The translations under genes were made by a program, and so were the position numbers. This document shows, in pieces, positions 48,804 to 64,000 of a stretch of 64,000 nt of DNA. The first letter of the stretch is position 1, and every line of letters begins with the position of its first letter. The stretch lies in assembly GCF_900105385.1 (NCBI RefSeq), contig NZ_LT629772.1:1-64000 (forward strand). The letters are read 5' to 3'. Origin of the DNA: Microlunatus soli (GTDB lineage: Bacteria > Actinomycetota > Actinomycetes > Propionibacteriales > Propionibacteriaceae). The notes beneath the pieces are model-generated. The model was not told the origin of the DNA and ran no database searches. It was given only the letters and a program-made list of their open reading frames with translations.

Positions 48804-48939
48804 GCGGCCGACGCTACCGGCTGATCGGGTGCCGGCGGCACACGGTCCGGGCGTTCCAGGGCTACGTTCGCCGCCGTCGATTGATCCGGCACCACCATCG
48901 GCGTGTCCCGGATCGGCGGCAGCCGACCATGGCTGCGGA

Positions 48940-49761
48940 TCAGACCTGACCGCCCTTGACGAGCACGATCCCCTGCTCAGCCAACTCGTTCTCCCGTGCC
49001 CTGACGACATCGTCACGTCGGTTGCGGATCCGGAGCAGTTCGGCGACGCAGGCCTCGACGTCGACACCGCCGCTGGCGACGTCGCCACCGAAGTGTGCTT
49101 CCAACTGCTCGATCGCCCCGTCCGGTTCGGGCGATCGACCGACGACCCTGACCCGAGCTTCCGCGTCGAATCCCATCAGCCGGGAGCCCAGCCAAGCCTT
49201 GGACTCCTCATCTGGTGCGAGGACGTAGTCGTACAGTCGCATTCGATTGCTGAGCCACTTCGTCCGCTCGCTTCCCGGCGCGCCGAGGAAGACGTGGAAC
49301 ATGTCGTGGAACCCGCCCTCGCGCAGATTGAGCTTGGATTGGTTGATGTAGACCATCACTTTGGTCTCCATCTGTTGCGCGACATACTCCGCCTCGGTCG
49401 CGATCCGTCCGAAGTAGCACGGCAATCGGGTGGCTGCCTGGACCGCGCGGTACGCCGACACGTCGCCGACCAGGATCGCGACCGGAGCTTCGCGGCTGAG
49501 GCGGTCCAACACCGGGAGCCAGGCGACCAAGCCGGCGATGCTGCTCGGCGACCCTGGAAAATTGATCAGGAAGTGGGTGCGATTGGCGGGATCTGCTGCG
49601 CGTGCCCTGCTGTTGGGCAGTACCGCGTGCTGATGACGCAAATTGCGTTGCAGGCGCCGATATCGCTGGACATACCCGGTCCAACGGCGAAGCCTGTTGC
49701 TGATCGGCTCACGGTGCAGTTGTCGGGTCCGCTGCATGAGCTGCGCGGGATCCGAGGCCAT
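48940..49761 (-). CDS. Polymer biosynthesis protein, related to CDP-glycerol transferase N-domains
   Basis: The 273-aa protein starts at ATG 49761, overlapping the stop of the CDP-glycerol transferase gene by one base. It has a basic N-terminus, then an alpha/beta domain: RTHFLINFPGSPSSIAGLVA, APVAILVGDVSAYRAVQA, KVMVYINQSKLNLREGGFHD, DMFHVFLGAPGSERTKW and MRLYDYVLAPDEESKAW. This resembles the N-terminal GT-B half of TagF-type enzymes and has no nucleotide-binding C-half. It could be a divergent partner subunit of the adjacent enzyme. Specific function unknown. Confidence 0.65.
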   Translation of the reverse strand: MASDPAQLMQRTRQLHREPISNRLRRWTGYVQRYRRLQRNLRHQHAVLPNSRARAADPANRTHFLINFPGSPSSIAGLVAWLPVLDRLSREAPVAILVGDVSAYRAVQAATRLPCYFGRIATEAEYVAQQMETKVMVYINQSKLNLREGGFHDMFHVFLGAPGSERTKWLSNRMRLYDYVLAPDEESKAWLGSRLMGFDAEARVRVVGRSPEPDGAIEQLEAHFGGDVASGGVDVEACVAELLRIRNRRDDVVRARENELAEQGIVLVKGGQV

Positions 49762-51122
49762 CAGGCGACCACCCTTCCGATCCGGGCCAGTTCCTTCGGC
49801 ACCGGATGCTTGCGGTGTACCCACTCATCCCGCTCTGCGATCATCCGTTCGACGGCCTGCGTAAACCGATTCAGCGAGGCACCCGGCGTCGTGTCGCCGT
49901 AGTAGTAGGCGGACCAGTTGCGCATCTTGGCGATCTGTTCCGGATCGGTCAACGCACGCCGCACGACCGCCACGATGTCGTGCGCCTGATCGGCGTTGAG
50001 CAGCGGCAGGTCGGCCAGGAATGTGGTCGGGTCGATGACGGCCGAATCTTCCGCAGGCTGGGTGACGACCAGCGGTTTGGCGGTGGTCAGCCAATCGTAA
50101 GCAACCGCCGAGACGTCGGTGATCATCAGGTCCGCGCCGGTCAGATGCCACCCGAAGGCGGTGTTGTCGATCAGATGCCCCGCCTGCGGATCCGCGGCAT
50201 TGGCGGCTTCGATCATCTGTCGGATCTTCAGGTCGCATGCACCGTGCTCGGCGACGGCGATTCCGGTCCGCGGATGCGGGCGATAGATCAGCCGGAAGCT
50301 GGGATCACCGAGCAACGATTCAACCATCGGGATGCCGTGGCTTGCCACCGACCCATAGCGCATCGACGTGCGACCCCCTTCCCAGGTGGGGGCATACAAG
50401 ATCGTCGTGCGGTGCCTGTCCGGCATGATCGGCGCGGAGTACTCGACATCGATCTGAGGACGCCCGATCTCGATCGTCCGGGCGTCGACGTCATAGTCGA
50501 ACAATCGCCGTCGCAATCGGTCCTTGGCCGCAGGACCGGCGACCAGATCGTAGTTGAACACCTTCATCCAATTCGACGCCATGTAGATCTTGTCCGATTC
50601 GCCATGGCAGATGAACGCATGCTGGCAACTGTTCAGACCGAGGATGCCGAAGTTGGTGTAATTCTGATTGGGATACAGGATCACTTTCGGCCGGTGTACC
50701 TTCCGCACGTGGTTCAGATCAGCCGCACCACGGATCAGCACTACCGGCAGTGACGTCTCCGCACGGACAATCTCGGCCGTCTCCGGCTCGTAGCACAGAA
50801 CCGCCACCGACCGTTGCCTGGACAGATACTCCAGCGGCCCATACCACTGGCGCACCTGGTAGAGGTTCACCGGTAGGTCAGGGAAGTGCAGCAACACATC
50901 GAACTGGCGGTGGGAGTGCCGACGGTAGGCAGGCAAACGAGCGAGGCGGTGATGCGCACGGCGACGATTCCACCATCTACGGACCCGACGCGCAGGCTCA
51001 AGGGCGTCGTGACCGCCGCGGCCGAAAGCAGGAGTCACCGCCGTCTCCGGGTCCGAGATCTGCTCGGTCGTCGACGTCGCAGCCGATCGGCCGGCCGCCG
51101 GCGTCGATACTCGGTCGACCAC
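49761..51122 (-). CDS. CDP-glycerol glycerophosphotransferase-family protein (TagB/TagF-like)
   Basis: The 453-aa protein starts at GTG 51122 behind GGAGGGGG. It has a GT-B fold with AFICHGESDKIYMAS (the His-Gly motif), ILYAPTWEGGRTS, LIYRPHPRTG and MITDVSAVAYDWLTTAKPLV, the motifs of the glyphos_transf family. Such enzymes add glycerol- or ribitol-phosphate from CDP-activated donors to membrane-linked acceptors during teichoic acid synthesis. It is divergent from the GT2-TagF fusion. Confidence 0.87.
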   Translation of the reverse strand: MVDRVSTPAAGRSAATSTTEQISDPETAVTPAFGRGGHDALEPARRVRRWWNRRRAHHRLARLPAYRRHSHRQFDVLLHFPDLPVNLYQVRQWYGPLEYLSRQRSVAVLCYEPETAEIVRAETSLPVVLIRGAADLNHVRKVHRPKVILYPNQNYTNFGILGLNSCQHAFICHGESDKIYMASNWMKVFNYDLVAGPAAKDRLRRRLFDYDVDARTIEIGRPQIDVEYSAPIMPDRHRTTILYAPTWEGGRTSMRYGSVASHGIPMVESLLGDPSFRLIYRPHPRTGIAVAEHGACDLKIRQMIEAANAADPQAGHLIDNTAFGWHLTGADLMITDVSAVAYDWLTTAKPLVVTQPAEDSAVIDPTTFLADLPLLNADQAHDIVAVVRRALTDPEQIAKMRNWSAYYYGDTTPGASLNRFTQAVERMIAERDEWVHRKHPVPKELARIGRVVA

Positions 51123-51432
51123 GTACTACCCCCTCCAGCGAGCTGCGCGTGCCTCCCCGGGCGCGCTTGATCCGCACACCGAAACAACCGACGTACCCAA
51201 AGTTAGCCCACAGTTCATGCCAGGATCACACGTTTTGGGTTGTGATGGACAGTCGCCACCCCCTCGGCGCGATCACGATCGGTATTATCCACCGAACTCC
51301 GGGTCGTGCAGGCGATCTACGTCAGGTGGCACGGGTCCGCACTCCACGTGAGTCGATCCGCACCTCGTAGCCGGGTTATCGTGGCGGGTCGGCCCTGCAG
51401 CCATCGGCTGCCGAGCGCAACGAAAATCAGCG
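51123..51432. other. Divergent intergenic region of the glycopolymer cluster
   Basis: 310 bp without a credible gene. It is AT-richer than average around 51180-51300, with AT-rich patches (AAAGTTAGCC, GGTATTATCC near 51281-51290) that could be -10 regions for the two divergent polymerase genes. No clear dyad operator was found. Confidence 0.5.
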
Positions 51433-54400
51433 GTGACACGTAGCATCACCGCGCGAGCTTCAAGGAGTCCGGGCCAGTTGTTGCCATCAGTCCGCAGACA
51501 CCTCGCCGGGAAGTATCGCGAGCACGTCCATCCCGCGTTGAGGGCAACGCTCCGCCGAGCTCGGGCGCGGCGTTCGGAGCAGCAGAGCGCGCTGGTCAGC
51601 ATCGTCATCCCCATCTACAACGTCGAGGAGTACCTCGACGAATGCCTCACCTCGGTCATCGAACAGACCTACCGCAATTTGGAGATCATCGTCGTCGACG
51701 ACGGGTCTCCGGACGGCTCGTACGAGATCGCGAAGTCCTACACCCGATGGGACCCGCGGATCCGCATCATCCGGCAACCGAACCGCGGACTGGGCGCGGC
51801 GCGTAACACAGGCATCGCCGACGCGCACGGCCGCTACCTCTGTTTCGCCGATTCCGATGACACGCTCCCCCAGGATGCGATCGCCAGAATGGTGGAGTCA
51901 CTGGGCCGCACAGGTTCCGATTTTGCCGTCGGAGCGCCGATCCGGATGGCCGACGGGAGGACCTGGAGTTCAGGATGGGTGAAGGACGTGCACGCGGTCG
52001 ACAGACCGCGCCTCACGCTCGACGAATTCCCCGAGATCCTGAAGGACGTCTTTGCCTGGAACAAGCTGTTCCGCGCCGACTTCTTCCACCGCGTCGTCGG
52101 CGCGTTCCCTGAGGACATCCGGTACGAAGACCAGGAAGCGACGGCGAAGGCCTACGTCGCCGGCACGTTCGATGTCCTGGCGGCACCGGTGTACTACTGG
52201 CGCCTCCGCGGCGACGGCACCTCGATCACCCAACAGAAGTCTGATCCGGCCGACCTTCACGACCGACTGATCGTGAAGAACCAGGTATCGGAAGTGATCT
52301 CCAACGGTGCCAGCAAGCAGACCCACGACGTGTGGTTGGCCAAGGCGATCGGCTTCGACCTGCGCTCCTACTTCGAGCAGATCCCGCGGACAGATGAAGC
52401 GTTCTTCCAGCAGTTGAGAGACGGCGTGAGGGCCCTCAACAGTCGGATGACGCCCGACATCTGGCGACTCGTTCCGATCATCGATCGGATCCCCGCGCGA
52501 GCTGTGTTGGCCGGGAATCGCGACGACGCCATCACAGCGGTGACGCAGCGTGAAGAGTATGGCTGGTTCGTCCCGGGTGATCTCCGCGACGGCGCCGCAT
52601 ACCTCGGCCGACGCTATCTGGAGGAGATGCAGCTCGAGCGGGACGACGCCTTGCTGCGCTTGGCCGATGCCGATGTGAAGGTGATGGCCAAGGCGACCTC
52701 GGTCTGGTGGCACGATCACTTCTTGCGCGTCGAGGGCCACGCCTACCTCAGCAATCTGGCCTATGACCCCGACGTGATGACGACCAGGATGGAGTTGGTG
52801 TCCGAGAACGAAATACGGGTCCCGCTGAAGGTTCGGAATCGACGAGACGAGCGACTCGACCTCGAGACCAAGGACTCCTGGAACAGCCACGCCGAGAGCG
52901 GCTTCGCCGTTGACATCGACCCGACCGAACTGCCGATCGGTGCCACCGACCCGTGGCGGGTCGAGATCACGGTCACCGCAGGAAAGATCAGCCGGACCGC
53001 CGTGTTGCGCGATTGCGACATCCGGGGAATCGGCGGCACGCGTCCAGTGGCACCTGCCCACGGCAACGTGCGTTGGATGGCCGGGTTCGAGGACGACAAC
53101 TTCTTCTCCCTTCGCCACACCACCGAGCTCGAATCACCGGTCTCCGAGCTCACCGTCGGGTCCCGCGGCGTCACGATCACGGTCGCCGACGCCGAGGCTC
53201 GGTCGCTGCGACTGACCTGCCGATCGCTGCGGCGGACCGTTGAGATCGCCGGCAGCCCGGTGAAGGTGGATGGCAAGAAGAGCGGCCACGTCCGTTTCAC
53301 GGTTTCGTTGCCGGAGCTGGTCGACGGCGACAAACTCTCGGTGGAGCATGTTTGGTCCATTCGCGCCCACGGCGGACAGCGGGAACCACGACGCCTGACA
53401 TATCCCGGCAATGCCGACCAGCTTCATCAGGCATCGCCAGAGCACCGGCAGCTACGCGCAACGATGACGCGGGCCGGTACGCTGCGCATCGCCCAGAACC
53501 GTTGGTGGGCGGTCGCAGACGACGTCAGCGTCGAGGACGAGACGGTCACGGTCACCGGGCGGATCGGCGCTCCGGGCGCTAGCGGTCTGCAGGCCAGGAT
53601 GGTCGGCGACAGCCAGATCATCGCGGCTGACAAAATCAAGCTCGACGGCTCTGCCGAGAGCTTCGCAGTGCGCTTTCCGTTCAACCTCGACGGTCGCATC
53701 CCCAGCACCAGGCACGGATTCAGTGTGCGGCTCTCGGTCTGGCTCGACGGCCGCCGCCAGGAGCGGTGGCTGAAGGTCTCCGACGGCCTCCAACACCGGT
53801 TCCCCGCAGACGCCGACAGTCGCCGGTTCGGTGTCACCATGACCCGGACGAAGAAGGCGGCCGGGCTCTGGCTACGGTTCCGGCCGCGGTACGCCACACC
53901 GGAACGGGGCCGGCTGGCACAGCGCCGATTGCACGAGCATTATCGGCTTCCCAGCTCTGCCGGGGGTGGGCTGACCACCGAACTTCGCGACGCCGTTCTG
54001 TTTGAGAGCTTCAACGGGCGCAATGTCGGCGACTCCGTCTTGGCGATCTATCACGAATTGCTCTCCCGCAACTCCACGATGAAGTTCTTCTGGTCAGTGT
54101 CGGATCTGACGACGCCTGTCCCAGAGGGAGCGACGCCGCTCCTGGTGCATACCCAGGAGTGGATGGACGTCTTGCACAATGCACGGTATCTGGTGAATAA
54201 CAGCAACTTCCCATTCTATTACCGCAAGCGTCCGGGACAAACCTACATCCAGACCTGGCACGGTACGCCGCTGAAGAAGATCGGAAACGATGTCCCCGGC
54301 GCGAACCTCTCCCTGTCCTATCGCCAACTGATGCGCCGGGAGCCACATTATTGGGATTCCCTCCTGGCCCAGAACGACTTCGCTGCCACCACGCTGCCAA

Positions 54401-55068
54401 GGGCATTCGGCTACGCCGGGCCGGTTGTGACTCAGGGTTACCCACGTAATGACATGTTGACCGGGCCCGATGCCCAACTGCGCCGCAAACAGGTTCGCTT
54501 GAACCTGGGACTCACCGACGAGAACTCGGTAGTGCTGTATGCACCGACGTGGCGGGACAACGTGTCGGTCAGCACCGGCTACGCGCTCGTATCGCACCTG
54601 GACTTCGCGAAGATGCGCAAGGCGATCGGTCAGCAGACCAGCATCCTGCTCCGTGGCCATGCCAACACGGCTCATCAAGCAAGCGCGGCCCCGGAGGGCG
54701 TCACGGACGTGACCCGTTACCCGGACATCAATGATCTTCTGTTGGCATCCGATGTCCTGATCACCGACTATTCCTCGGTGATGTTCGACTATGCGGTTAC
54801 CGGCAAACCCATGCTCTTCCTGACACCCGACATCGACGAGTACCGTAATGTCACGCGCGGGTTCTATCTGGATTTCGAGAAGATCGCTCCCGGACCCCTA
54901 TGCCGGACCAATGACGATCTGATTGCAGCGCTACGAGACCTGCCGGGAACGACCGAGGCCTTCCGGGAGCGCTATCGACGGTTCGCCGCCGACTTCACAG
55001 CTCGAGACGATGGCAACGCGACCCGCCGAGTTGTCGACACCATCTGGGGGCCGGCTGTTTCCGGCTGA
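51433..55068 (+). CDS. Bifunctional GT2 glycosyltransferase / CDP-glycerol transferase (TagF-like)
   Basis: The 1211-aa protein has a GT-A family 2 domain at about residues 54-290 (VSIVIPIYNVEEYLDEC, VVDDGSPDGSYEIA, FADSDDTLPQDAI with the DxD). A beta-rich middle of about 450 residues follows. The C-terminal GT-B glyphos_transf domain covers residues about 850-1205, with TWHGTPLKKIGND (His943), VVLYAPTWRDN, LLRGHAN and LITDYSSVMFDYA. It is a single-chain polymerase that could add a sugar and then polyol-phosphate. The start codon is uncertain (GTG with no clear SD). The sulfotransferase gene follows. Confidence 0.92.
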   Translation: MTRSITARASRSPGQLLPSVRRHLAGKYREHVHPALRATLRRARARRSEQQSALVSIVIPIYNVEEYLDECLTSVIEQTYRNLEIIVVDDGSPDGSYEIAKSYTRWDPRIRIIRQPNRGLGAARNTGIADAHGRYLCFADSDDTLPQDAIARMVESLGRTGSDFAVGAPIRMADGRTWSSGWVKDVHAVDRPRLTLDEFPEILKDVFAWNKLFRADFFHRVVGAFPEDIRYEDQEATAKAYVAGTFDVLAAPVYYWRLRGDGTSITQQKSDPADLHDRLIVKNQVSEVISNGASKQTHDVWLAKAIGFDLRSYFEQIPRTDEAFFQQLRDGVRALNSRMTPDIWRLVPIIDRIPARAVLAGNRDDAITAVTQREEYGWFVPGDLRDGAAYLGRRYLEEMQLERDDALLRLADADVKVMAKATSVWWHDHFLRVEGHAYLSNLAYDPDVMTTRMELVSENEIRVPLKVRNRRDERLDLETKDSWNSHAESGFAVDIDPTELPIGATDPWRVEITVTAGKISRTAVLRDCDIRGIGGTRPVAPAHGNVRWMAGFEDDNFFSLRHTTELESPVSELTVGSRGVTITVADAEARSLRLTCRSLRRTVEIAGSPVKVDGKKSGHVRFTVSLPELVDGDKLSVEHVWSIRAHGGQREPRRLTYPGNADQLHQASPEHRQLRATMTRAGTLRIAQNRWWAVADDVSVEDETVTVTGRIGAPGASGLQARMVGDSQIIAADKIKLDGSAESFAVRFPFNLDGRIPSTRHGFSVRLSVWLDGRRQERWLKVSDGLQHRFPADADSRRFGVTMTRTKKAAGLWLRFRPRYATPERGRLAQRRLHEHYRLPSSAGGGLTTELRDAVLFESFNGRNVGDSVLAIYHELLSRNSTMKFFWSVSDLTTPVPEGATPLLVHTQEWMDVLHNARYLVNNSNFPFYYRKRPGQTYIQTWHGTPLKKIGNDVPGANLSLSYRQLMRREPHYWDSLLAQNDFAATTLPRAFGYAGPVVTQGYPRNDMLTGPDAQLRRKQVRLNLGLTDENSVVLYAPTWRDNVSVSTGYALVSHLDFAKMRKAIGQQTSILLRGHANTAHQASAAPEGVTDVTRYPDINDLLLASDVLITDYSSVMFDYAVTGKPMLFLTPDIDEYRNVTRGFYLDFEKIAPGPLCRTNDDLIAALRDLPGTTEAFRERYRRFAADFTARDDGNATRRVVDTIWGPAVSG

Positions 55069-55234
55069 GACAGCCCGCACGCGGGCGCTCGGTAGGGCTC
55101 TACTCACGGCGGCGGCCGCCGCAAGCTCTGCGACGTACAGATTCGAGTCCCTTCCGTCACGGAACAATGCACCCGCTATCGTTTTGGCGCAAAGGGCTCT
55201 GATGGCAGAGCCCCGGTCTCGTTGAGGAGTGTCA

Positions 55235-56098
55235 TTGCCCGGCCCCGAGCGTCGACTCTCGTCCGCCCTCCGCCAGCTCGCTGTGAAAGGGCGTCCCGGA
55301 GCTCGGCGGTACCCCGAACAGCAAGTCGTCGATGCCTCGGCTGCGGAGCACGACTCGGGGGCGCACCGATTGGAGACGGCCCTGTCGCTAGCTCAAACGC
55401 TGGTCAACGAGCTGCAGCACCAGCGCGCCGAGACGCCGTCGCCGGCAAGCGAGCACGATCTCGGCTACCTGTTCGTCGTCGCGTACGGGCGGTCTGGCTC
55501 GACCCTGCTGCAGGGCATCCTGAACTCGATTCCCGGCTATGACATCCACGGAGAGAACAGAGATGCCCTGCACCATCTCTATCTGTTCCACTCGACCCTG
55601 GACGCTCAACGCCAACGGAACACCAGGGACTACGAGCTCACCCCTACCAGTTCGTGGTACGGCATCGATCGATACGACCATGCTCGCGCGATGGACGACC
55701 TCCGAGCCACTGTCATCGACAGGATGCTGCGTCCCGCCCCCCATACCAGGGTCGTCGGTTTCAAGGAGATCCGGTGGTGGCACAAGGACTGGGAGTCCTA
55801 CCTCGACTTCCTCCTCAACTTGTTTCCCGGTGCTCGATTCGTCTTCAACACGCGATCCCACGAGGCCGTGGCTCGCAGCAAGTGGTGGGGTTCATCCCCC
55901 GACCCGCGGGCCGAACTCAAGCGGTACGAGTCGCGAATGGACGACATGGCAGCGCACCTGGGCGAGGCAGCCTATCGAGTTCACTATGACAGCTATGTCG
56001 CCGATCCCACGGTGTTGACAGGACTCTACGATTGGCTGGGCGAGTCGTTCGACCATGAGTCGATCAGCGCCGTCATGGCGCGGAAGCACTCCTATTGA
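55235..56098 (+). CDS. Sulfotransferase-family protein
   Basis: The P-loop-like PAPS-binding motif FVVAYGRSGSTLLQGIL and the 3'-phosphate motif FVFNTRSHEAVARSKWW define the family. GFKEIRWWHKDWESYL also fits sulfotransferase folds. The N-terminal about 70 residues form a predicted coil. TTG 55235 is favoured by GAGGAG at 55224-55229; GTG 55229 is an alternative. It would transfer sulfate from PAPS onto a carbohydrate. Placed directly after the GT2-TagF gene, it suggests a sulfated surface polymer. Confidence 0.9.
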   Translation: MPGPERRLSSALRQLAVKGRPGARRYPEQQVVDASAAEHDSGAHRLETALSLAQTLVNELQHQRAETPSPASEHDLGYLFVVAYGRSGSTLLQGILNSIPGYDIHGENRDALHHLYLFHSTLDAQRQRNTRDYELTPTSSWYGIDRYDHARAMDDLRATVIDRMLRPAPHTRVVGFKEIRWWHKDWESYLDFLLNLFPGARFVFNTRSHEAVARSKWWGSSPDPRAELKRYESRMDDMAAHLGEAAYRVHYDSYVADPTVLTGLYDWLGESFDHESISAVMARKHSY

Positions 56099-56115
56099 GT
56101 CCACGTCGCGGCATG

Positions 56116-58221
56116 TCACCGTTGCTCACTGCGAGCCGGGGATTCTCCGGCGCCGCGGATGACAGCTGCCAAGTACGAGTCGGACGAGATGAACCCGTCC
56201 CGATGCTGCCGGTTCAGCTTGTGGGTCAGCTTGTGAATGAACGATGACCTCAGAACCCGATCCAGCTCGTTGCTGTCGAGCGGCTCGTACATCATGACCT
56301 GCAGCGCATGCGGTGGCCGCGATCCCAGCCGGATCCCGCCGTCCCACTCCTCGGCGAATCCGGGCTCAAGACGATAGAGCATCTCGAACAGATGATGAAT
56401 CAGGTAGTAGTCGATCAGATCCTGCCGATGCTCGAACCAGGTCAGCAACGCTGCGCGCAACAGAGCAACGATGCGAGACCCCTGCCGGCTGACCATGAAC
56501 CAGCTGGAGATCCGCGACTCGACATAGTTGAACGCGAAGAAGCCGGAGCCGGCCAACTCGGTCACGGACTCCGTCAGTGGCGCGGTGGTGAGACAGGTTG
56601 CATCGACCCAGATCCCGCCGTACCGGGCCAGCAGCTCGACCCGCAGCGCGTCGGAGAAGAGCGCACGCTGACCCACTGACCCCCTCATCAGGGAATCGGG
56701 GAAGTCGGCGTAGTAGGGCAATGTCGCATCGTCGATGAAATGCAGCTGATCGGGCGGGTTGTGGCGTTCGAGGGCTCGTCTGCACGCCCGGACAACTGGC
56801 GGAGCATCGTGGTAGCCCTGCCCCCAGTAGGTGAAGATCGGGAATTCGCCGAGCCCTCCGGCACCGGATCGTGCGGTGTGATCGGCACGCAACCGGATCT
56901 CAGACAGGTGCTCGGCGAGGAATTCGCCGACCTCCCGTCGGGGGGCGAACCGATTCACATCGATCTCCGCCGCGCGTCGGACATCGAACGGCGCGCCGGC
57001 CTCGGCCGCCGCCGTCGATCGAACCAGCTTGCCGATCTCCGCCCGTTGACCGGTTCGTTCCAGCGCGAACGCCAGTCGATAGCGGGTCGTGGAACCGGCG
57101 TCACCGTCAACCGCCTCCCGCAGCGGGTCGACCGCCGCCGCCCACGCACCCTGATCGGACAGGCGACCGCCGACGAGCTCGGCCAGAATCGGCGAATGCG
57201 GCTTGGTCAGGAGGCGAACAAGCTGATTGTTCGTCTTGCTGATGATCTTGCTCGCGGGTGATCGGACGTCCGCTTCGCGCCGCGTCGCGATCATCCGTTC
57301 AGCCTCACTGATCAACAACGTCGCTGCCGCGGACAGGTCCGCGTACTCACCGGCTCGCACCTGATCCAGATACTGCCCCAGGACCATCGCCTCATCAACG
57401 GCCAGATGGGTCGCCCGAGCGACGATCTGTGCAAAGATCTCGGCAATCACTGCGCGGTCTGGGGTGGCCCAACTGTCACTCCCGGGCCAGGACTTGGACG
57501 GTTCGATCATCGTCCGAACGGACTCCGAGGCGCCGGGCTCGCCGGCCCATCGGTAGGAGTACCACCGGTCGTCCGATTCGTCACCATCGAAGTAATCGAT
57601 ATCGCCGACGGTCTGAGTCAACTGGAACCGATCCCAGCCGACGGCACCACCGTTCGCGGTCATGCCACAGATCAGCCGGATCCACGCCTCCGAGGCCTCC
57701 TCGGGCACCCGGAAGCGCACCATGATCCGATACCGACCGGGTTCATTCGGCGCCCGGTCGCTACTGGCCAACGCCCATTTAGTGGAGCCGTCGATGACAG
57801 CGCCCGCCGCAATGGACAGGCGGCTCTGGGCCAGTGGCCCGGTCAACGGATCGCTCAGCACGACATCCACCGAACAGGTGTAGAACTTCCCCGGCTGCAT
57901 CCGCAGACGTATGCCGCCGTGCCGCCCCCCGGGAGCGAGGTGCGTATCGGTATTGCGACCGACACCCTCGATCCACAGTGCCGTCGTGGCGTCCGATCTC
58001 GACGCTCGGCGGGCGTGAACGTGGACGTAAACGGCACCGGCCGCGTATGACTCGGCGTCGCCGGAGTTCACACCCAGAACCGTCGCACGGCCCAGACGAG
58101 GGCACGGGGCCAGGTTGCGGACCTGCGGGAGGACAGTGTTCTCGCCAATGGTCACCGTTGACCTCTCCTGCTTGCCCGGTCCAGGTGTCTTCGGCGACTG
58201 ACGCCTCGCCGATCTGAACAT
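56116..58221 (-). CDS. Capsular polysaccharide synthesis glycosyltransferase with N-terminal beta-sandwich
   Basis: The 701-aa protein ends with a Caps_synth/GT32-like domain (about residues 440-690): FPIFTYWGQGYHDAPPVVRA, LHFIDDATLPYYADFP, FSDALRVELLARYGGIWVDA with the DxA/DxD-like site, and SWFMVSRQGSRIV. Residues about 30-220 look like a jelly-roll carbohydrate-binding module (IRLRMQPGKFYTCSVDV, YRIMVRFRVPEEASEAW, WDRFQLTQTVGDIDYFDGD). A helical linker joins the two. The combination of binding module and capsule transferase is unusual for a cytoplasmic enzyme. Convergent with the sulfotransferase gene. Confidence 0.87.
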   Translation of the reverse strand: MFRSARRQSPKTPGPGKQERSTVTIGENTVLPQVRNLAPCPRLGRATVLGVNSGDAESYAAGAVYVHVHARRASRSDATTALWIEGVGRNTDTHLAPGGRHGGIRLRMQPGKFYTCSVDVVLSDPLTGPLAQSRLSIAAGAVIDGSTKWALASSDRAPNEPGRYRIMVRFRVPEEASEAWIRLICGMTANGGAVGWDRFQLTQTVGDIDYFDGDESDDRWYSYRWAGEPGASESVRTMIEPSKSWPGSDSWATPDRAVIAEIFAQIVARATHLAVDEAMVLGQYLDQVRAGEYADLSAAATLLISEAERMIATRREADVRSPASKIISKTNNQLVRLLTKPHSPILAELVGGRLSDQGAWAAAVDPLREAVDGDAGSTTRYRLAFALERTGQRAEIGKLVRSTAAAEAGAPFDVRRAAEIDVNRFAPRREVGEFLAEHLSEIRLRADHTARSGAGGLGEFPIFTYWGQGYHDAPPVVRACRRALERHNPPDQLHFIDDATLPYYADFPDSLMRGSVGQRALFSDALRVELLARYGGIWVDATCLTTAPLTESVTELAGSGFFAFNYVESRISSWFMVSRQGSRIVALLRAALLTWFEHRQDLIDYYLIHHLFEMLYRLEPGFAEEWDGGIRLGSRPPHALQVMMYEPLDSNELDRVLRSSFIHKLTHKLNRQHRDGFISSDSYLAAVIRGAGESPARSEQR

Positions 58222-58346
58222 CTCCCAAGGCCCCTTTCGCCGGCGCCCGATCGAATCGGCAACGTTACCTTAATGTTCGGGGCGCCACGTGAGAATCAGC
58301 GGCACGGCGTGCCGATCGACACGTCGGCCCGACGTCGCCGAGCTCT

Positions 58347-58352
58347 AGACTC
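58347..58352 (+). promoter_or_regulatory. Likely -10 of a leaderless transcript
   Basis: TAGACT lies 6 bases before ATG 58359, the spacing expected when transcription begins at the start codon. No SD precedes that ATG, which supports leaderless expression of the methyltransferase. Confidence 0.5.
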
Positions 58353-58358
58353 ACGCAG

Positions 58359-59171
58359 ATGCCGCGTCCACCATTCTGGCCGAAACGACCGTCCAAACCC
58401 TCGTCGGCACCGGCCTACGTGAACGCAAGCCGGGTGCAACTGCGGCGAGCCATGGAGCGGTTCGCCGCAGAAACACCTAGTGGTTCGAGGGTGTTGGATG
58501 CCGGCGCCGGGACCTCGCCCTACAGGCGCCTGTTCCGCCGGCACCATTACGAAGCTTCCGACTTCGCCCAATTGCCCAAGAAGTATGCGCCGTTGGACTA
58601 CGTCTGCGACATCACTGCCATACCAACCGAGGACGACCGGTTCGACCGCGTCATCTGCAATCAGGTCCTGGAGCACGTCCCAGAGCCCGCCCAGGCGATT
58701 CGAGAGTTGTATCGAGTGCTGAAGCCGGGCGGATTGATCTTCTGCTCCGCACCACTCTTCTACGCCGAGCATCAGCGTCCGTACGATTTCTATCGCTATA
58801 CCCAATTCGCCCTGCGACGACTCTTCACCGAGGCCGGCTTCGAGATCGCCTCGATCGAGCGTCTGGAGGGTGTCTTCGGCACCACCGCCTACCAGTTCCA
58901 ACAGATGTGGCTGTTCCTGCCCCGGACCGTCGACGACCTCAGGCAACTGAACGTGGGCGGTCGCATCGTCTACCTCGCCCCATTCGTGCTCGGTACTCGG
59001 TGGATGGCGGGCCATCTGCGGAAGCTGTACTCGGCCGCCGAGGTCCGCTGGAAGTACGTCGGGCACGGCATGCCGAAGAACTGGGTGGTGATCGCACGGA
59101 AGCCGAATCCGGTACTCGACGAACGCGCTACGATCCGTCGACGATCGGCCGACGAAAGCGGTCGATCCTGA
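58359..59171 (+). CDS. Class I SAM-dependent methyltransferase
   Basis: The 270-aa protein has motif I VLDAGAGTSPYRRLF, the acidic residue in EASDFAQ, DRFDRVICNQVLEHVP and LKPGGLIFCSAPLFY. The pattern fits Methyltransf_11/UbiE-like enzymes. The C-terminal region is extended and hydrophobic (VYLAPFVLGTRWMAGHL). Context suggests methylation of a sugar or lipid intermediate of the surface polymer; substrate unknown. Confidence 0.9.
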   Translation: MPRPPFWPKRPSKPSSAPAYVNASRVQLRRAMERFAAETPSGSRVLDAGAGTSPYRRLFRRHHYEASDFAQLPKKYAPLDYVCDITAIPTEDDRFDRVICNQVLEHVPEPAQAIRELYRVLKPGGLIFCSAPLFYAEHQRPYDFYRYTQFALRRLFTEAGFEIASIERLEGVFGTTAYQFQQMWLFLPRTVDDLRQLNVGGRIVYLAPFVLGTRWMAGHLRKLYSAAEVRWKYVGHGMPKNWVVIARKPNPVLDERATIRRRSADESGRS

Positions 59172-59222
59172 CCGGATAGGGTTTCGCCAGTCCTCGATGA
59201 CAACGATCGAGGAGCGGTCACC

Positions 59223-61871
59223 ATGATCACTCTGCGGAGGAGTTGCATGTTCCAACCCGTTCGACGTGCTGTGCGCCGGATCGTCCCCGACCCGATCGCC
59301 GTCTTTCTGCGGAACAACCTGCCTACCGTGACCGGGAGCGCCCAGGCACCCGCGTCGCAGGCCGCGGGCACGACCACCGAGACGCCCGTCGCGTCGCACC
59401 GTGCAACATCTGCCGAGCGGCCCCACCCGACGAAGCAGTCCAAGACCTTGCAGATTGCCGAACCGCTGCTGTCGGCGAGTCCCGCAGATGTCGCCGCCGC
59501 GATACGCCGCCTGTTGGAGGAAAAGCAACCATCGACAGCACTGGGTGTCGCCTCCGCGCTGCAAGGCACCCCGGCCGCTCTCGCCGCCGGGATCGTCGCA
59601 GGCGTCCGAGGGTTCGATGATCGTGCATGGGGATTACTCAAAGACCTTCCCGTCGAGATCTGGTCGGTCCTGGCACCCAGCGAGTACGTGCGGTCGGGGC
59701 TCGCGTGCGACCGGGACGCCACGGTGGCAAGCCTGTGGTCGTTGACCAAGACGCCGCCGCCGAAGATGCCGGCACGGGCCTGGCACGATCTCCTCGGCCC
59801 GGTCTACGCCTACGGCGAGTCGGAGTTGGCCAAAGCCATCTTCAAACGGCTGGACGGGGCTGTCGGCGACGGGTCCGGTGTCGACGGAAACGTCCGCTGG
59901 CCCCGGGACTGGTTCCGTGACTGGGTGGACAAGCCGGGTGACGCACCGACCATCCAGCAAGCGCAGGGCGTCACGTCGTCATTCGCAATTCTTGACTACC
60001 GGCACCCGGACCGCTTTCGGGCTTCGGCGAACATCGGCGACCACGTCCAATCGCTGGCCGCGCTGAGCCACGTTGTCCGCCACCAGGGTTTGCGCTTCGA
60101 CGGCGCCGACGACATGGTCGACCTCGCCAGCCGGCTGCAGTCCCGGGTCCGGCCGGAGGTCCGGCGGACCGATCGCACCGGGACCGTGCAGCTCCTCTTG
60201 GCCCAACGCGACGCATCCAACCATGACGCCTTTCCGGTCGATACCTGGGCCATCGGTTTCGGCTGGTACATGCACCCACAGTTCGGCATCAACTACGACT
60301 TCCCGTTTCACCCGAACCTTCGCCCGATCTTCGTGTCGTTCCACGTCAACAGCCGGCAGATGATCACGCCGGAGGCGATCGAGTACCTCAAGAAGTACGG
60401 CCCGGTCGGCTGCCGGGATTGGACAACGGTCGATCTGCTGCTCTCCGCCGGTGTGGACGCCTTCTTCTCCGGTTGTATGACCACCACGGTGAGCAACGTG
60501 TTCCCCGACACCGATGTCCGGCCGGCCGACGACGCCCCGACGGCGTACATCGACGTCCCCGCCGAGAAGGTCCCCGCGGGCGCGCTGACCGCGGGCCAGG
60601 CTCGTGACGCCGTCCGTCTGACACCGTTCGCGCAGAACGTCGATTTTGCCGTCGGCATGCTCGAGACCTACCGGCGCAAGTATGCCGACATCACGACCAG
60701 TCGACTTCACGTCTACCTCCCCAGCCGGAGTATCGGCGTCAAGGTCAATTTCACTCCCGAGAACATGTCGGATCCCCGCTTCGCGGGCCTGGCACCGATC
60801 GATGACGCTGCCTTCGACGCGATCAGAGACGGCATCAACGCCAAACTGGAGCCGGTGATCGGAGCCGCGCTGTCCGGCAGTTCGGTTGACGAGGTCTACG
60901 GCCTGTGGCGAGAGCTCACCGGTCCCGCTGTCAGTGCTGCGAAAGAACGCCTCGCCCAGCAGGTCGAGATCGCCGCCCCGACGTCGCGTCTTGCCAGCGT
61001 CGTGCCGCAAAGCGCACCGGCACTGCCCAACGGGCTCGACCCGAATGCAATCCATGTTGCGATCCGGGCCACCCGACACCACGTCCGCCTGCTCCGGGTG
61101 CTGCTCTCATCGATCGCCGAGCACACGTCGCGACCGGTCCATGCACGGATCATCACCCGCTCACCCGATCTGTTCAAGGTCGGCGAGCTGGAGCAGACGG
61201 CGCCGGGGGTTCGCGTTTCTGTCGTCGACAGCCGCGCCTACGCCGAGGATCTGGTCAAGCCCGATGGCGACGAACACTCCGCGGCCGAAGTGGACAAGTT
61301 CATCACTGCCGATCTGTTCCCGGGAGTACGCCGGTTGATCACGATGCCGGTCGGAACGATCGTCACCGGTGACCTGGCCGAGCTGGCCGACCTCGAGCTG
61401 GACGGTCAGCTGCTGGCTGCCCCGCGCCCTTACGGATCTCGGCACACCAGCGGGTACGCCGTTCTCCTGGGAGCCGCCCGTAGACTACGCGATCTGATCG
61501 ATCGCAGCGCCGAATTCCGTCGCCTCATGCATCAACGTCACGCCTTCGACTTCGAACGATTCGAGACCGACCTGCTTGTGATCGATGCGCAGCAGTGGCA
61601 AGAGCGCGGATCGCTGAGAAGTCTGTTGGGCTGGGCGGAAAACTTCGGTCTGACCTACCGGGAGGCATTGCACGCCCATCTGGGGGCCGAGACCGCTGTC
61701 ATCCCCGACCGCTGGCACGTCATCCCCAGTCAGGCCCCGGCGAGCGATATCGCTCTGGTTCATTGGGCCGAACGTCCCTGGCCGTGGGGCGAGGATCCGG
61801 CACCGCTACGTGATATCTGGCAGGCGGCTCAAGCCGTCACGAACGCTCGATCTCAACCACCGGTCGCGTAG
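59223..61871 (+). CDS. Fusion of polysaccharide pyruvyl transferase-like and GT8-like domains
   Basis: The 882-aa protein has SDs for both ATG 59223 and ATG 59247. Residues about 255-465 resemble polysaccharide pyruvyl transferases (FAILDYRHPDRF, ASANIGDHVQSLAALSHV, PIFVSFHVNSRQM, GPVGCRDWTTVDLLLSAGV, AFFSGCMTTTV). Residues about 610-860 resemble GT8 (IHVAIRATRHHVRLLRVLLS, TIVTGDLAELADLELDGQLL, FETDLLVIDAQQW). At the usual DxD site it reads TMPVG (residues 707-711), so the metal-binding pair is lost. It may add ketal pyruvate to a polymer sugar. Confidence 0.82.
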   Translation: MITLRRSCMFQPVRRAVRRIVPDPIAVFLRNNLPTVTGSAQAPASQAAGTTTETPVASHRATSAERPHPTKQSKTLQIAEPLLSASPADVAAAIRRLLEEKQPSTALGVASALQGTPAALAAGIVAGVRGFDDRAWGLLKDLPVEIWSVLAPSEYVRSGLACDRDATVASLWSLTKTPPPKMPARAWHDLLGPVYAYGESELAKAIFKRLDGAVGDGSGVDGNVRWPRDWFRDWVDKPGDAPTIQQAQGVTSSFAILDYRHPDRFRASANIGDHVQSLAALSHVVRHQGLRFDGADDMVDLASRLQSRVRPEVRRTDRTGTVQLLLAQRDASNHDAFPVDTWAIGFGWYMHPQFGINYDFPFHPNLRPIFVSFHVNSRQMITPEAIEYLKKYGPVGCRDWTTVDLLLSAGVDAFFSGCMTTTVSNVFPDTDVRPADDAPTAYIDVPAEKVPAGALTAGQARDAVRLTPFAQNVDFAVGMLETYRRKYADITTSRLHVYLPSRSIGVKVNFTPENMSDPRFAGLAPIDDAAFDAIRDGINAKLEPVIGAALSGSSVDEVYGLWRELTGPAVSAAKERLAQQVEIAAPTSRLASVVPQSAPALPNGLDPNAIHVAIRATRHHVRLLRVLLSSIAEHTSRPVHARIITRSPDLFKVGELEQTAPGVRVSVVDSRAYAEDLVKPDGDEHSAAEVDKFITADLFPGVRRLITMPVGTIVTGDLAELADLELDGQLLAAPRPYGSRHTSGYAVLLGAARRLRDLIDRSAEFRRLMHQRHAFDFERFETDLLVIDAQQWQERGSLRSLLGWAENFGLTYREALHAHLGAETAVIPDRWHVIPSQAPASDIALVHWAERPWPWGEDPAPLRDIWQAAQAVTNARSQPPVA

Positions 61872-61879
61872 CCCACGGA

Positions 61880-61914
61880 TGAGGGCCCGCTCAGCAACGA
61901 CGAGTGGGCCCTCA
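61880..61914. terminator. Bidirectional terminator hairpin
   Basis: TGAGGGCCCGCTC (61880-61892) and GAGTGGGCCCTCA (61902-61914) form a 13-bp stem with one mismatch and a 9-base loop. It lies between the convergent pyruvyltransferase-GT8 and TylF-type genes. Confidence 0.75.
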
Positions 61915-61953
61915 AATCTCTGGCAACCGTCGATCAGGACGGTGCGCCACCCG

Positions 61954-62922
61954 TCACAACCTCACGACGTGGACCTTCTTACGCCGCTCAAGCAAGTAGC
62001 CCGGCCGGTTTGCGAAGTATTCGTCGACGGCCTTGCGGCAACCGGACCAGTGGAAGTAGTCGTCGAGCACCAGCCGGCCCCCGGTGACGAGGTGGGGTGC
62101 GATCCGCTCCAGGCAGACGATTGTCGACTCGTACCAGTCGCCGTCCAGGTGCGCGAACGCCACCGGCTCGTCGATCTGAATCGTGTCTTCGAACAAGCCT
62201 TTCACCAGGTCGATGTGGTGCTCAGCTGTCGGCACGCCGTGTCGGGCAAACGCCTCGGTGACCTCACCGAAGAGATCGTCGCGGTATCCGTAATACGTCT
62301 CTCCGGCGATGCCGGAGGCGCCGCCCTCAGCGATCTCCCGGTAACGCTTGTGCACGTCCTTCCCGTCGGACTCCGAAGGTTCCGGGATCTGACCGAACAC
62401 GTCGTAGACCTTCATCGGCCGCTCTTTGTCCTTCGCCGCCGCCATCACGATCGCCGAGCCTCCGCGCGCCGCTCCGGCTTCGATGATCAAACCCTCGCGG
62501 CCGGACAGATCCGCGTCGAGAGCCTGACGAGCAAGCACTGTCAGCTCCGGCACACCGAGGTAGGTGAGATGTTCCCCGCGGGTATCGTCGATGATCTTCC
62601 GCACGTGATCTGGTACGTCGAGCCCCGGCAACGGATCGAAGAGGGACAATCGAGTGGCGCGCAGTTCTGCCTTCCATTTGTTGACGGTCCGTCGCTCTCG
62701 ATCAGCAAGAGCCCGCAGCCGCCCGACCTCGGCCTGGGCAGCGGTCAGCTCCTCGCGCAGCTTGTTGTCGGCACGCAACCGTTCGACCTCTGCGTTGGCG
62801 TGCGCCAGCTCGAACTCCAATTCGCGCGTTCGCTGGCCGATGACGCGATCGAGGGTCTGTCTTCCGCGCCTCAGGACATCGGCTCCACGGCTACGGGCGG
62901 CTCGGGGCTGCTCTTCAGTCAT
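61954..62922 (-). CDS. TylF/MycF-family sugar O-methyltransferase with N-terminal coiled coil
   Basis: The 322-aa protein has residues about 25-95 forming a coiled coil (RELEFELAHANAEVERLRAD) before a TylF-like domain. Motif I is LIIEAGAARGGSAIVMAA; metal/substrate residues lie in AFAHLDGDWYESTIVCLERI and RLVLDDYFHWSGCRKAVDEY (acidic Asp pair). Relatives O-methylate deoxysugars of macrolides or surface glycans using Mg2+ and SAM. The coiled coil may dock it to the polymer assembly complex. Confidence 0.9.
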   Translation of the reverse strand: MTEEQPRAARSRGADVLRRGRQTLDRVIGQRTRELEFELAHANAEVERLRADNKLREELTAAQAEVGRLRALADRERRTVNKWKAELRATRLSLFDPLPGLDVPDHVRKIIDDTRGEHLTYLGVPELTVLARQALDADLSGREGLIIEAGAARGGSAIVMAAAKDKERPMKVYDVFGQIPEPSESDGKDVHKRYREIAEGGASGIAGETYYGYRDDLFGEVTEAFARHGVPTAEHHIDLVKGLFEDTIQIDEPVAFAHLDGDWYESTIVCLERIAPHLVTGGRLVLDDYFHWSGCRKAVDEYFANRPGYLLERRKKVHVVRL

Positions 62923-63248
62923 GCGTTCTCGGGCTCCTCACTGGTCGGCATCACGCTGGCTCGAGAGTCGGTGCCACGAGCAGGAATGCTTGCATCTGGT
63001 CGGCAGCACACCCCGAGTTGTGCGATGTCACGCTACCGGTGCCGGTGCCCGCCGAAGCGGAACCTACCGTGGTATCCCGAATTTCACTCGCCGTGTCCCC
63101 CGTCACGGCACGTTAAGGTTTCCAACATCTCGTGTTGGTGAATCGGCAACCTGAGAGGCTTCCCAGTCACGCCCCCGGCAGACGGCCCGAAGTACGTAGC
63201 CGTCCGACTTCAACGCAGTACGCTGATTCAGCCGACAAGGGGGAACCG
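62923..63248. other. Divergent intergenic region before the last GT2 gene
   Basis: 326 bp without a credible gene. It has a perfect small dyad CCAACA-TCTCG-TGTTGG at 63122-63138, near the AT-richer TTAAGG patch (63113-63118), possibly an operator or promoter. The SD of the downstream GT2 gene (GGGGGAA) is at its right end. Confidence 0.5.
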
Positions 63249-64000
63249 ATGATCCAGCGTGATGGCAGCCTTGGTGCGTCACTTCAGACCGGCGTCCACC
63301 GGGTCACCAGTAACTGGCAGGACCGCCGTCGTCGGGCGAAGGCATCCTCGGGGGTTCGGGTGTCGGTGATCATTCCGGTCTACAACGCGCTGCCCTATGT
63401 GATCGACTTACTGACCTCACTGGACCGGCAGGGTCTCAATGCACGACAGTTGCAGGTGATCATTGTCGACGACGGCTCGACCGACGGTGGGGACGCGGTG
63501 CTTGAGGATTACGCCCGGAGCCACACTCACGCGACCGTCATCCATCAAGCCAATTCGGGGTGGCCCGGACAACCGCGCAATCTGGGTCTTGACATCGCGA
63601 CCGGCAGGTGGGTGTTCTTCGCCGACGCCGACGACTGGTTCGCCCCGGACGCGCTGCTGGAGCTCGCGGATTTCGGCGATCGCCACGACGCCCAGGTCGT
63701 GCTGCCTCGCGTCAAGCGCTGCGGCACCCGACACGGCGGCAAGTTCCGCGAGACTCTCGTGTCGGCCTCCAAGCGGCAGGCCTTCCGGACCTTCACCCCT
63801 CACAAGCTCATCCGACGCGATCTGATCGAGGAACCAGGGATGCGGTTTCGTGAGGGAAAGGTGCGATTGGAGGACGGGATATTTCTGAGCCGTTGCTACC
63901 TCCTGGCAGATCGGATCGGCATCCTCGCCGAACGCGATCTCTACTACTTCCGCGGCCGCGAAGATGGTAAGAACCTATCGGCCGAACGAATCGATCCCGA
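63249..64000 (+). CDS. GT2-family glycosyltransferase (3' end outside window)
   Basis: The frame from ATG 63249, behind GGGGGAA, stays open to the window end (250 codons visible). The GT-A signatures are VSVIIPVYNALPYVIDLL, QVIIVDDGSTDGGDAVLE and FFADADDWFAPDALLE with the DxD. The sequence LEDGIFLSRCYLLADRIGIL is typical of the acceptor side of GT2 enzymes of teichoic/capsule clusters. The missing C-terminus may hold a second domain like that in the GT2-TagF gene. Confidence 0.92.
   Translation, partial: MIQRDGSLGASLQTGVHRVTSNWQDRRRRAKASSGVRVSVIIPVYNALPYVIDLLTSLDRQGLNARQLQVIIVDDGSTDGGDAVLEDYARSHTHATVIHQANSGWPGQPRNLGLDIATGRWVFFADADDWFAPDALLELADFGDRHDAQVVLPRVKRCGTRHGGKFRETLVSASKRQAFRTFTPHKLIRRDLIEEPGMRFREGKVRLEDGIFLSRCYLLADRIGILAERDLYYFRGREDGKNLSAERIDP

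What the first reader, a model, noticed from the sequence alone, without database searches (positions are those of the whole stretch)
48940..64000. Candidate new surface glycopolymer pathway: CDP-polyol polymerases with sulfation, pyruvylation and methylation
Within 15 kb are three CDP-glycerol-transferase-type proteins (one fused to GT2), a sulfotransferase, a Caps_synth transferase carrying a binding module, two methyltransferases, a pyruvyltransferase-GT8 fusion and a GT2. All belong to families that build or decorate cell-wall polymers. Sulfated teichoic-acid-like polymers are not well known in Gram-positives, and the multidomain layout is unusual. Neighbouring genes are divergently or convergently paired, so there are several transcription units. 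The idea of one pathway is inference from proximity.
Basis: partly seen in the sequence, partly recalled or inferred. Interest (0 to 1): 0.8.

Follow-up and report, generated by a model that had tools for sequence, protein, structure and literature searches.

The report
Variable teichoic acid locus with sulfotransferase
A soil actinobacterium carries a gene cluster that probably builds and decorates a teichoic-acid-type wall polymer, and the gene beside the chain-building enzyme looks as if it adds sulfate, a decoration not generally known on such polymers.

Summary
The cluster is real and continues to about 67.8 kb with two LicD genes. The host is Microlunatus-like. The locus sits at one chromosomal site (GH95 ... 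VWA-MoxR). Three same-genus species share its core there: gphDiv-gphN, TarS-linker GT2, LicD; two also have the full GT2-CDP-polyol polymerase. Decorating genes differ.

Main new result: the sulfotransferase follows the polymerase directly. In the two relatives with that polymerase, another sulfotransferase-like family (HIGPxKTGTT) fills the slot; homologues lie within 1.5 kb of TarIJ or CDP-polyol-transferase genes in 6 of 28 other loci. Relatives of the window's sulfotransferase sit in teichoic-acid loci of three other genera, once near cysQ-cysD-cysN.

Best reading: a teichoic-acid locus with swappable decorating genes that probably sulfates its polymer. A sulfated, pyruvylated actinobacterial wall polymer is known (Promicromonospora citrea): a new variant of a known kind. 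No chemistry tested.

The parts
48940..49761 (-). gphN: 273-aa half-protein, N-terminal half of a CDP-polyol-transferase fold only; its ATG starts on the last base of gphDiv's stop codon
   Evidence: no Pfam/NCBIfam match; aligns to the N-half of gphDiv, lacks HG motif and C-half; 24 matches incl. itself in the protein search, 20 of them 271-280 aa; paired with gphDiv in G006, G012, G007
49761..51122 (-). gphDiv: divergent CDP-polyol phosphotransferase (Glyphos_transf)
   Evidence: PF04464 34.8 bits; 71-74% identical orthologues in three same-genus genomes
51433..55068 (+). GT2 + CDP-polyol polymerase fusion (TagF-like C-terminal part)
   Evidence: PF00535 142 bits, PF04464 326 bits; PDB TagF 3l7i 252 bits; full-length matches 65% (G007), 59% (G012), 47% (G016)
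55229..56098 (+). Sulfotransferase (PF13469), 160 bases downstream of the polymerase on the same strand; start may be 55235
   Evidence: 59.4 bits; invariant YGRSGSTL loop in 20 aligned members; relatives in TA loci of other genera
56116..58221 (-). Caps_synth glycosyltransferase with an unassigned N-terminal region
   Evidence: PF05704 166 bits over residues 458-675; no PDB sequence match at E<=1
58359..59171 (+). SAM-dependent methyltransferase (Methyltransf_23/11)
59223..61871 (+). PyrGT8: N-terminal helical part, pyruvyltransferase-like domain (about residues 236-590), GT8 domain (about 600-882)
61954..62922 (-). TylF-type O-methyltransferase, recurrent neighbour of PyrGT8/PyrT genes
   Evidence: PF05711 78.8 bits; next to a PyrT gene in L047 and L049, one gene from a PyrGT8 paralogue in L012; fused to PyrGT8 in P0031
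63132..64000 (+). GT2 with TarS linker (ends at genome position 64373)
   Evidence: PF00535 103.6 bits, PF22181 59 bits in L009:3132-4373; best PDB sequence match 5tze 'Glycosyl transferase' (that this entry is TarS is recalled)

Best explanation
This is a teichoic-acid-type wall glycopolymer locus at a fixed chromosomal site, with a conserved assembly core and exchangeable decorating enzymes. The GT2-TagF-like fusion probably lays down a sugar and polyol-phosphate backbone from CDP-polyol (CDP-ribitol from the TarIJ fusion near 6.26 Mb). gphDiv with its half-partner gphN may start or switch chain growth. The TarS-like GT2, the Caps_synth enzyme and GT8 add side sugars; the LicD proteins add a phospho-substituent; PyrGT8 pyruvylates and the two methyltransferases methylate. 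The sulfotransferase beside the polymerase transfers sulfate from PAPS onto the polymer before export. Shown by sequence: families, domain order, conserved site and core, slot adjacency, PAPS enzymes in the genome. Inferred: every substrate, the order of steps, that all act on one polymer, and that sulfate is on it.
For: Core and site: gphDiv-gphN, TarS-linker GT2 and LicD lie between GH95 and VWA-MoxR in G000, G006, G012 and G007; full-length orthologues of the fusion polymerase are in G012 and G007, while G006 has only a 39% match to its C-terminal domain there. VWA is in 20 of 20 same-genus genomes; of nine others checked beyond VWA, G016 carries a related locus and eight show none by my probes (seven over 20 kb, G004 over 9 kb). 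Sulfation: the sulfotransferase follows the polymerase by 160 bases; in G007 and G012 the same slot holds a HIGPxKTGTT protein whose family profile has a PDB sulfotransferase as best match (3rnl, E 4e-4), and 9 of 30 members match Pfam Sulfotransfer_4 at E<=1, best 5.1e-4; in G006 a 60% homologue is 3.4 kb from TarIJ; 6 of 28 other homologue loci have TarIJ or a CDP-polyol transferase within 1.5 kb. Relatives of the window's own sulfotransferase lie in TA loci of Cellulomonas sp. PhB143, Segeticoccus rhizosphaerae and Nocardioides insulae; the Cellulomonas locus also holds cysQ, cysD, cysN. In Promicromonospora umidemergens one lies with a TagH-like ABC exporter (under NCBIfam's cut-off), a second sulfotransferase and a PS_pyruv_trans gene; the genus has a known Glc-3-sulfate, pyruvylated wall polymer. 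APS kinase is present. Pyruvylation: Pvg1p-like fold; clear PF04230 proteins at the same site in G012 and G007.
Against: No chemistry. The window's sulfotransferase is absent from 19 of 19 same-genus and 13 of 13 same-family genomes searched, and most of its relatives are not near TA genes by my probes: of 80 loci kept, 3 TA, 7 other glycan-like, 25 guaB-linked, 45 other. APS kinase is in 18 of 20 same-genus genomes, so it does not discriminate. The KTGTT family is only remotely tied to sulfotransferases: single proteins match no Pfam family at E<=0.01 and no PDB chain, and profile comparison with the window's family is not significant. Of 14 further KTGTT loci without TarIJ close by, 13 show no TA gene within about 10 kb. 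There is no independent background rate: the 18 control stretches without TA genes had already been seen to lack them. G016's stretch shows no sulfotransferase-type loop by a simple motif scan. Genes are on both strands, so they are not one operon. A profile comparison of PyrGT8 with clear pyruvyltransferases was not significant.
Confidence: 0.58

Rival explanations
1. An ordinary variable teichoic-acid locus in which the sulfotransferase acts on something else, such as a glycolipid, an exopolysaccharide or a small molecule, and sits there by chance or hitch-hiking.
For: Sulfotransfer_3 proteins are common in the genus (15 of 20 genomes); most kept relatives of this one are not beside TA genes; the decorating genes are not shared with G006, G007 and G012, apart from a 33% PyrGT8 match in G006.
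Against: The polymerase-adjacent slot is filled by a sulfotransferase-like gene of another family in both relatives with a full orthologous polymerase at the site; TA-linked cases in other genera, one with cysQ-cysD-cysN.
Confidence: 0.27
2. The locus makes a non-phosphate sulfated wall glycan or capsule (like the Promicromonospora teichulosonic acid), with the CDP-polyol transferases contributing only a primer or side groups.
For: The known sulfated and pyruvylated actinobacterial wall polymer is phosphate-free; Caps_synth and a WbbM-like GT8 point to other polysaccharides too.
Against: A TagF-like polymerase, a divergent CDP-polyol transferase, two LicD genes and a TarS-linker GT2 in one locus.
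Confidence: 0.1
3. Unrelated surface-glycan genes gathered by chance in a recombination-prone region; no shared pathway.
For: Genes on both strands; lower GC3 in the region (mean 0.777 for 9 called genes against 0.837 for 40 called before 47.6 kb, Mann-Whitney p 0.006); decorating genes differ between species.
Against: Core conserved in place in four species; the same functional classes (methyltransferases, pyruvyltransferase, GT2, LicD) refill the site.
Confidence: 0.05

Closest known systems
Wall teichoic acid biosynthesis loci (TagF/TarL polymerase, TarIJ, TarS type)
   Same: TagF-like polymerase domain (3l7i) and TarL match (8va1), TarS-linker GT2, TarIJ-type fusion in the genome
   Different: Polymerase fused to GT2; LicD, pyruvyltransferase-like, sulfotransferase and methyltransferase genes alongside; the TarIJ-type gene lies in another locus
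Sulfated and pyruvylated Kdn-teichulosonic acid of Promicromonospora citrea 665T (chemistry; review PMC6801904, section 22 read)
   Same: An actinobacterial wall glycopolymer with both sulfate and pyruvate; a congener has a relative of this sulfotransferase beside exporter and pyruvyltransferase genes
   Different: Described there as non-phosphorylated; here the polymerase families predict a polyol-phosphate polymer; the section read names no genes
Pyruvylated teichoic acids of Nocardiopsis and Brevibacterium iodinum (review PMC6801904, section 22)
   Same: Pyruvate ketals on actinobacterial polyol-phosphate polymers
   Different: No sulfate reported for them in the section read
wps-1 exopolysaccharide cluster of Actinoplanes missouriensis (PMC13390465, passages seen)
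   Same: Actinomycete glycan cluster with sulfotransferase and methyltransferase genes, sulfation predicted and not shown
   Different: Wzx/Wzy-dependent exopolysaccharide, not teichoic-acid type
WbbM (PDB 6u4b)
   Different: Only the GT8 part aligned; here the preceding domain is pyruvyltransferase-like

Membership tests
Teichoic acid biosynthesis locus | CDP-polyol polymerase of the TagF/Glyphos_transf family | tested here: met
   PF04464 326 bits against cut-off 22.1; 3l7i E 7.7e-74
Teichoic acid biosynthesis locus | CDP-polyol supply in the genome | tested here: inconclusive
   IspD + SDR fusion (TarIJ layout) over Pfam cut-offs at L011:13817-15265, under NCBIfam's ribitol-5-P cytidylyltransferase cut-off (135.6 of 166 bits); TagD-like match under cut-off (128.7 of 165.4)
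Teichoic acid biosynthesis locus | Linkage-unit synthesis (TagO/TagA), TagGH export, LCP ligation | not tested
   not searched for in the window's own genome
Teichoic acid biosynthesis locus | Wall polymer of polyol phosphate | not testable with these tools
   needs wall chemistry
PAPS-dependent sulfotransferase (PF13469) | Family score and conserved PAPS-binding loop | tested here: met
   59.4 bits against cut-off 27; invariant Y86-G-R-S-G-S-T-L93, R209 and S217 in 20 aligned members; that these are the PAPS contacts is recalled
PAPS-dependent sulfotransferase (PF13469) | PAPS supply | tested here: met
   APS kinase 192.9 bits beside a PAPS-reductase-family gene; also in 18 of 20 same-genus genomes
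Polysaccharide pyruvyl transferase (PF04230), domain of PyrGT8 | Pfam gathering score | tested here: not met
   16.3 of 25.3 bits; 24 of 37 homologues match at E<=0.01, best 3.1e-5
Polysaccharide pyruvyl transferase (PF04230), domain of PyrGT8 | Pyruvyltransferase fold | tested here: met
CDP-glycerol glycerophosphotransferase, gphN | Complete two-domain fold with HG motif and CDP-binding half | tested here: not met
   alignment with gphDiv and the polymerase; no family match
Sulfotransferase superfamily, HIGPxKTGTT proteins of relatives | Sequence match to sulfotransferases | tested here: inconclusive
   3rnl E 4e-4 as best PDB match of the family profile, next matches E 0.28 and more; Sulfotransfer_4 in 9, Sulfotransfer_1 in 4, Sulfotransfer_3 in 3 of 30 members at E<=1, best 5.1e-4; single protein alone matches no PDB chain; no match to the window's family profile

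The most novel reading that the evidence does not exclude
Sulfated teichoic acids are an unrecognised and widespread class in Propionibacteriales and some other actinobacteria: at least two unrelated sulfotransferase families have been recruited beside TagF-like polymerases or TarIJ genes, and in this genus the polymerase-adjacent slot is kept for a sulfotransferase even when the gene is swapped for a non-orthologous one.
Probability: 0.38. Interest if true: 0.8.

Novelty: new variant of a known kind. Interest (0 to 1): 0.62.

Why it matters
If right, sulfate joins D-alanine, sugars, phosphocholine and pyruvate (recalled, pyruvate) as a teichoic-acid decoration, with named candidate genes and an easy chemical test (sulfate in purified wall polymer). 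It would supply candidate genes for sulfation of actinobacterial wall polymers such as the one described in Promicromonospora, and would explain why sulfotransferase-like genes recur beside TarIJ and TagF-like genes. The gphDiv-gphN pair adds a small conserved half-enzyme family with no assigned function.

Tried and rejected
Whole-cluster co-conservation: rejected; only the core is shared. PAPS supply as a discriminating marker: rejected, APS kinase is in 18 of 20 same-genus genomes. Close plasmid relatives of the polymerase gene: none. Rfam and tRNA features in the window: none. Profile comparison of PyrGT8 against clear pyruvyltransferases: not significant, four rows only on one side. Profile comparison of the two sulfotransferase families: not significant. 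A sulfotransferase tree (91 of 108 rows; 17 guaB-linked rows dropped before building) was poorly resolved; the TA-linked rows did not group with the window's protein. A full-length PyrGT8 fold search listed only GT8 matches, so the domain was folded alone. Binding module in Caps_synth: no match found, which does not exclude one. Background control for TA genes near KTGTT genes: 23 held stretches, 5 with TA-type genes, all 5 fetched for gphDiv; the other 18 had already been seen to lack such genes, so they are no independent control. Papers: the phrases 'sulfated teichoic acid', 'teichoic acid sulfate', 'sulfated wall teichoic' and 'sulfate-containing teichoic' gave 0 papers; 'sulfotransferase' with 'teichoic acid biosynthesis' gave 1, unrelated by title and abstract start; Microlunatus with teichoic gave 4, none on the subject by title and abstract start; wider searches gave 14 and 11 listed papers, of which I opened one each (PMC6801904: passages and one section; PMC13390465: passages); PMC9912281 passages held nothing on it. 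The library is open-access only, so this is weak evidence of absence.
Full report
What was checked. The window is G000:C1:1-64000 of a one-contig 6.73 Mb genome. Fetching the next 36 kb shows that the locus runs on: the GT2 at 63132 ends at 64373 and has a TarS linker, then come two LicD genes (64380-65975, 66529-67836), then VWA and MoxR-type genes. Genes on fetched stretches were called by a simple script of mine (frame G+C), so their starts are not checked.

Where it sits. Orthologues of gphDiv at 71-74% identity occur in G006, G012 and G007. In all three the neighbourhood lies between a GH95 gene and VWA-MoxR, as in the window; in G006 the interval is longer, about 34 kb against 20 kb here, and holds other genes such as a UPF0182 protein. 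Identities: gphN 63-72%, TarS-linker GT2 54-62%, LicD 23-52%; the GT2-polymerase fusion is 65% in G007 and 59% in G012 over its full length, but only a 39% match to its C-terminal domain in G006. The sulfotransferase, Caps_synth protein, Methyltransf_23 protein, TylF protein and PrsW have no match at the site in any of the three; PyrGT8 has a 33% match in G006 only. VWA is present in 20 of 20 same-genus genomes. I looked downstream of VWA in nine more genomes: G016 holds a related locus (47% polymerase, 35% Caps_synth, a PS_pyruv_trans-like gene), seven show nothing by my probes over 20 kb, and G004 nothing over the 9 kb available. The other seven same-genus genomes were not examined there. 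Relatives refill the site with the same classes of enzyme: methyltransferases, clear pyruvyltransferases (47 and 56 bits), GT2, GT61, LicD, an acyltransferase, and a pyruvyltransferase-LicD fusion scoring 21.7 of 25.3 bits for the first part.

The half-enzyme. gphN (48940-49761) starts on the last base of gphDiv's stop codon. It aligns with the N-terminal half of gphDiv but stops before the CDP-binding half, and has LGAPG where gphDiv has ICHGE and the polymerase WHGTP. The protein search (which sees only relatives sharing short words) gave 24 matches including itself; 20 are 271-280 aa, and the 19 others among these are 62-80% identical to it; the two with organism names are from Microlunatus elymi and M. 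endophyticus; only one match, at 26%, is a complete PF04464 protein. It is a conserved partner or pseudo-enzyme rather than a third transferase (inference).

The sulfotransferase. It is a clear PF13469 protein, 160 bases downstream of the polymerase on the same strand. It is absent from the 19 same-genus and 13 same-family genomes searched and present in 8 of 24 same-order genomes. A scan of named genomes gave 271 encoded relatives, of which the best 80 were kept. By my probes 3 of 80 lie with teichoic-acid genes (Cellulomonas sp. PhB143, Segeticoccus rhizosphaerae, Nocardioides insulae), 7 match two or more other glycan probes, 25 lie beside guaB, 45 have none of these; the probes miss some glycan genes, as GT2-like neighbours in about 8 Nocardioides loci show (by eye). 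In the Cellulomonas locus the gene follows a GT2-polymerase fusion and one further gene, and cysQ, cysD and cysN follow within about 6 kb, before another CDP-polyol transferase gene; CysD and CysN pass NCBIfam cut-offs, CysQ does not. The N. insulae and Segeticoccus loci hold a second protein with a GAGRSGTS loop, sulfotransferase-like by eye. In Promicromonospora umidemergens the relative lies with a TagH-like ABC exporter (190.9 bits, cut-off 538), a UDP-GlcNAc 2-epimerase, a second sulfotransferase and a PS_pyruv_trans gene. A review reports for Promicromonospora citrea a wall polymer with glucose 3-sulfate and 7,9-pyruvylated Kdn (PMC6801904, section read). Two metagenome proteins, P0124 (sulfotransferase, 60%) and P0002 (PyrGT8, 70%), are listed on contigs of the same length, 5,846 bases; this suggests linkage but was not checked.

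The shared slot. Directly downstream of the orthologous polymerase, G007 and G012 carry a protein with the loop HIGPMKTGTTSLQ (66% identical to each other). In G007 the start I used is 11 bases past the polymerase stop; in G012 a likely start overlaps it (coordinates). No Pfam family matches these proteins singly at E<=0.01. A profile of 30 family members has a PDB sulfotransferase as its best match (3rnl, E 4e-4), and 9 of 30 members match Sulfotransfer_4 at E<=1 (best 5.1e-4). G006 has a 60% homologue 3.4 kb from TarIJ. The family is found in 111 of 293 genomes of the order. Of the 30 best loci returned, 8 have TarIJ or a CDP-polyol transferase within 1.5 kb: the two from this slot and 6 of the other 28. 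Of 20 larger stretches fetched, the 6 chosen for nearby TarIJ also hold a polymerase-type gene, while of the 14 others 1 does. An independent background rate is lacking: the 18 controls without such genes had been seen before. So two apparently unrelated sulfotransferase-like families occupy one slot in this genus, and each recurs in teichoic-acid loci elsewhere.

Mechanism, and what is inferred. Backbone synthesis by the GT2-TagF-like fusion follows from family knowledge. Which polyol is used is not shown: a TarIJ-type fusion points to CDP-ribitol, a TagD-like match is under its cut-off. Sulfate transfer to the polymer rests on gene position and on cases in other genera. PAPS can be made (APS kinase), but so it can in most of the genus: APS kinase is in 18 of 20 genomes, this one included. 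Linkage-unit and export genes were not searched in this genome.

Novelty. Pyruvylated teichoic acids and a sulfated, pyruvylated phosphate-free wall polymer are known in actinobacteria. A sulfated polyol-phosphate polymer did not turn up in the open-access library by the searches named under Tried and rejected, most of whose listed papers were seen only as titles and abstract starts. The locus is therefore a new variant of a known kind, with a testable claim on sulfation. On checking, I lowered the main confidence from 0.60 to 0.58 and the novel case from 0.40 to 0.38, and raised the first rival from 0.25 to 0.27, because the control is not independent and the Pfam count was taken at E<=1.

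Noticed in passing
G000:C1:6250001-6310000 (L011-L013): A second, larger teichoic-acid locus in the same genome: TarIJ-type fusion, several large CDP-polyol transferases, a PyrGT8 paralogue (39%) and a TylF paralogue (61%).
   Followed up: partly
G000:C1:6629000-6668800 (L049, L163): A third glycan locus with a PyrT-like gene, a TylF-like gene and a large GT2 protein; two PF13469 matches lie within about 20 kb.
   Followed up: partly
L213, L214, L215, L216, L217, L218: HIGPxKTGTT sulfotransferase-like genes, some in pairs, near TarIJ and CDP-polyol transferases in same-order genomes; L218 also has a PyrT-like gene.
   Followed up: partly
L220 (G109), L221 (G112): Three neighbouring HIGPxKTGTT genes each, without teichoic-acid genes found in the 20 kb.
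   Followed up: no
25 loci among L076-L146: In many Nocardioides a relative of the window's sulfotransferase lies near guaB (IMP dehydrogenase), a conserved place with no evident glycan link.
   Followed up: no
order-wide, e.g. L071, L073: gphDiv relatives occur in 122 of 293 genomes of the order; in L071 and L073 no other teichoic-acid gene was found nearby by my probes; role unclear.
   Followed up: no
window 47670-48821: PrsW-type intramembrane protease beside the locus; no match at the site in G006, G007 or G012.
   Followed up: partly
L067:7529-9895 (G007): Pyruvyltransferase-like (under cut-off) and LicD domains in one 788-aa protein with a weak F5/8 type C match between them.
   Followed up: no
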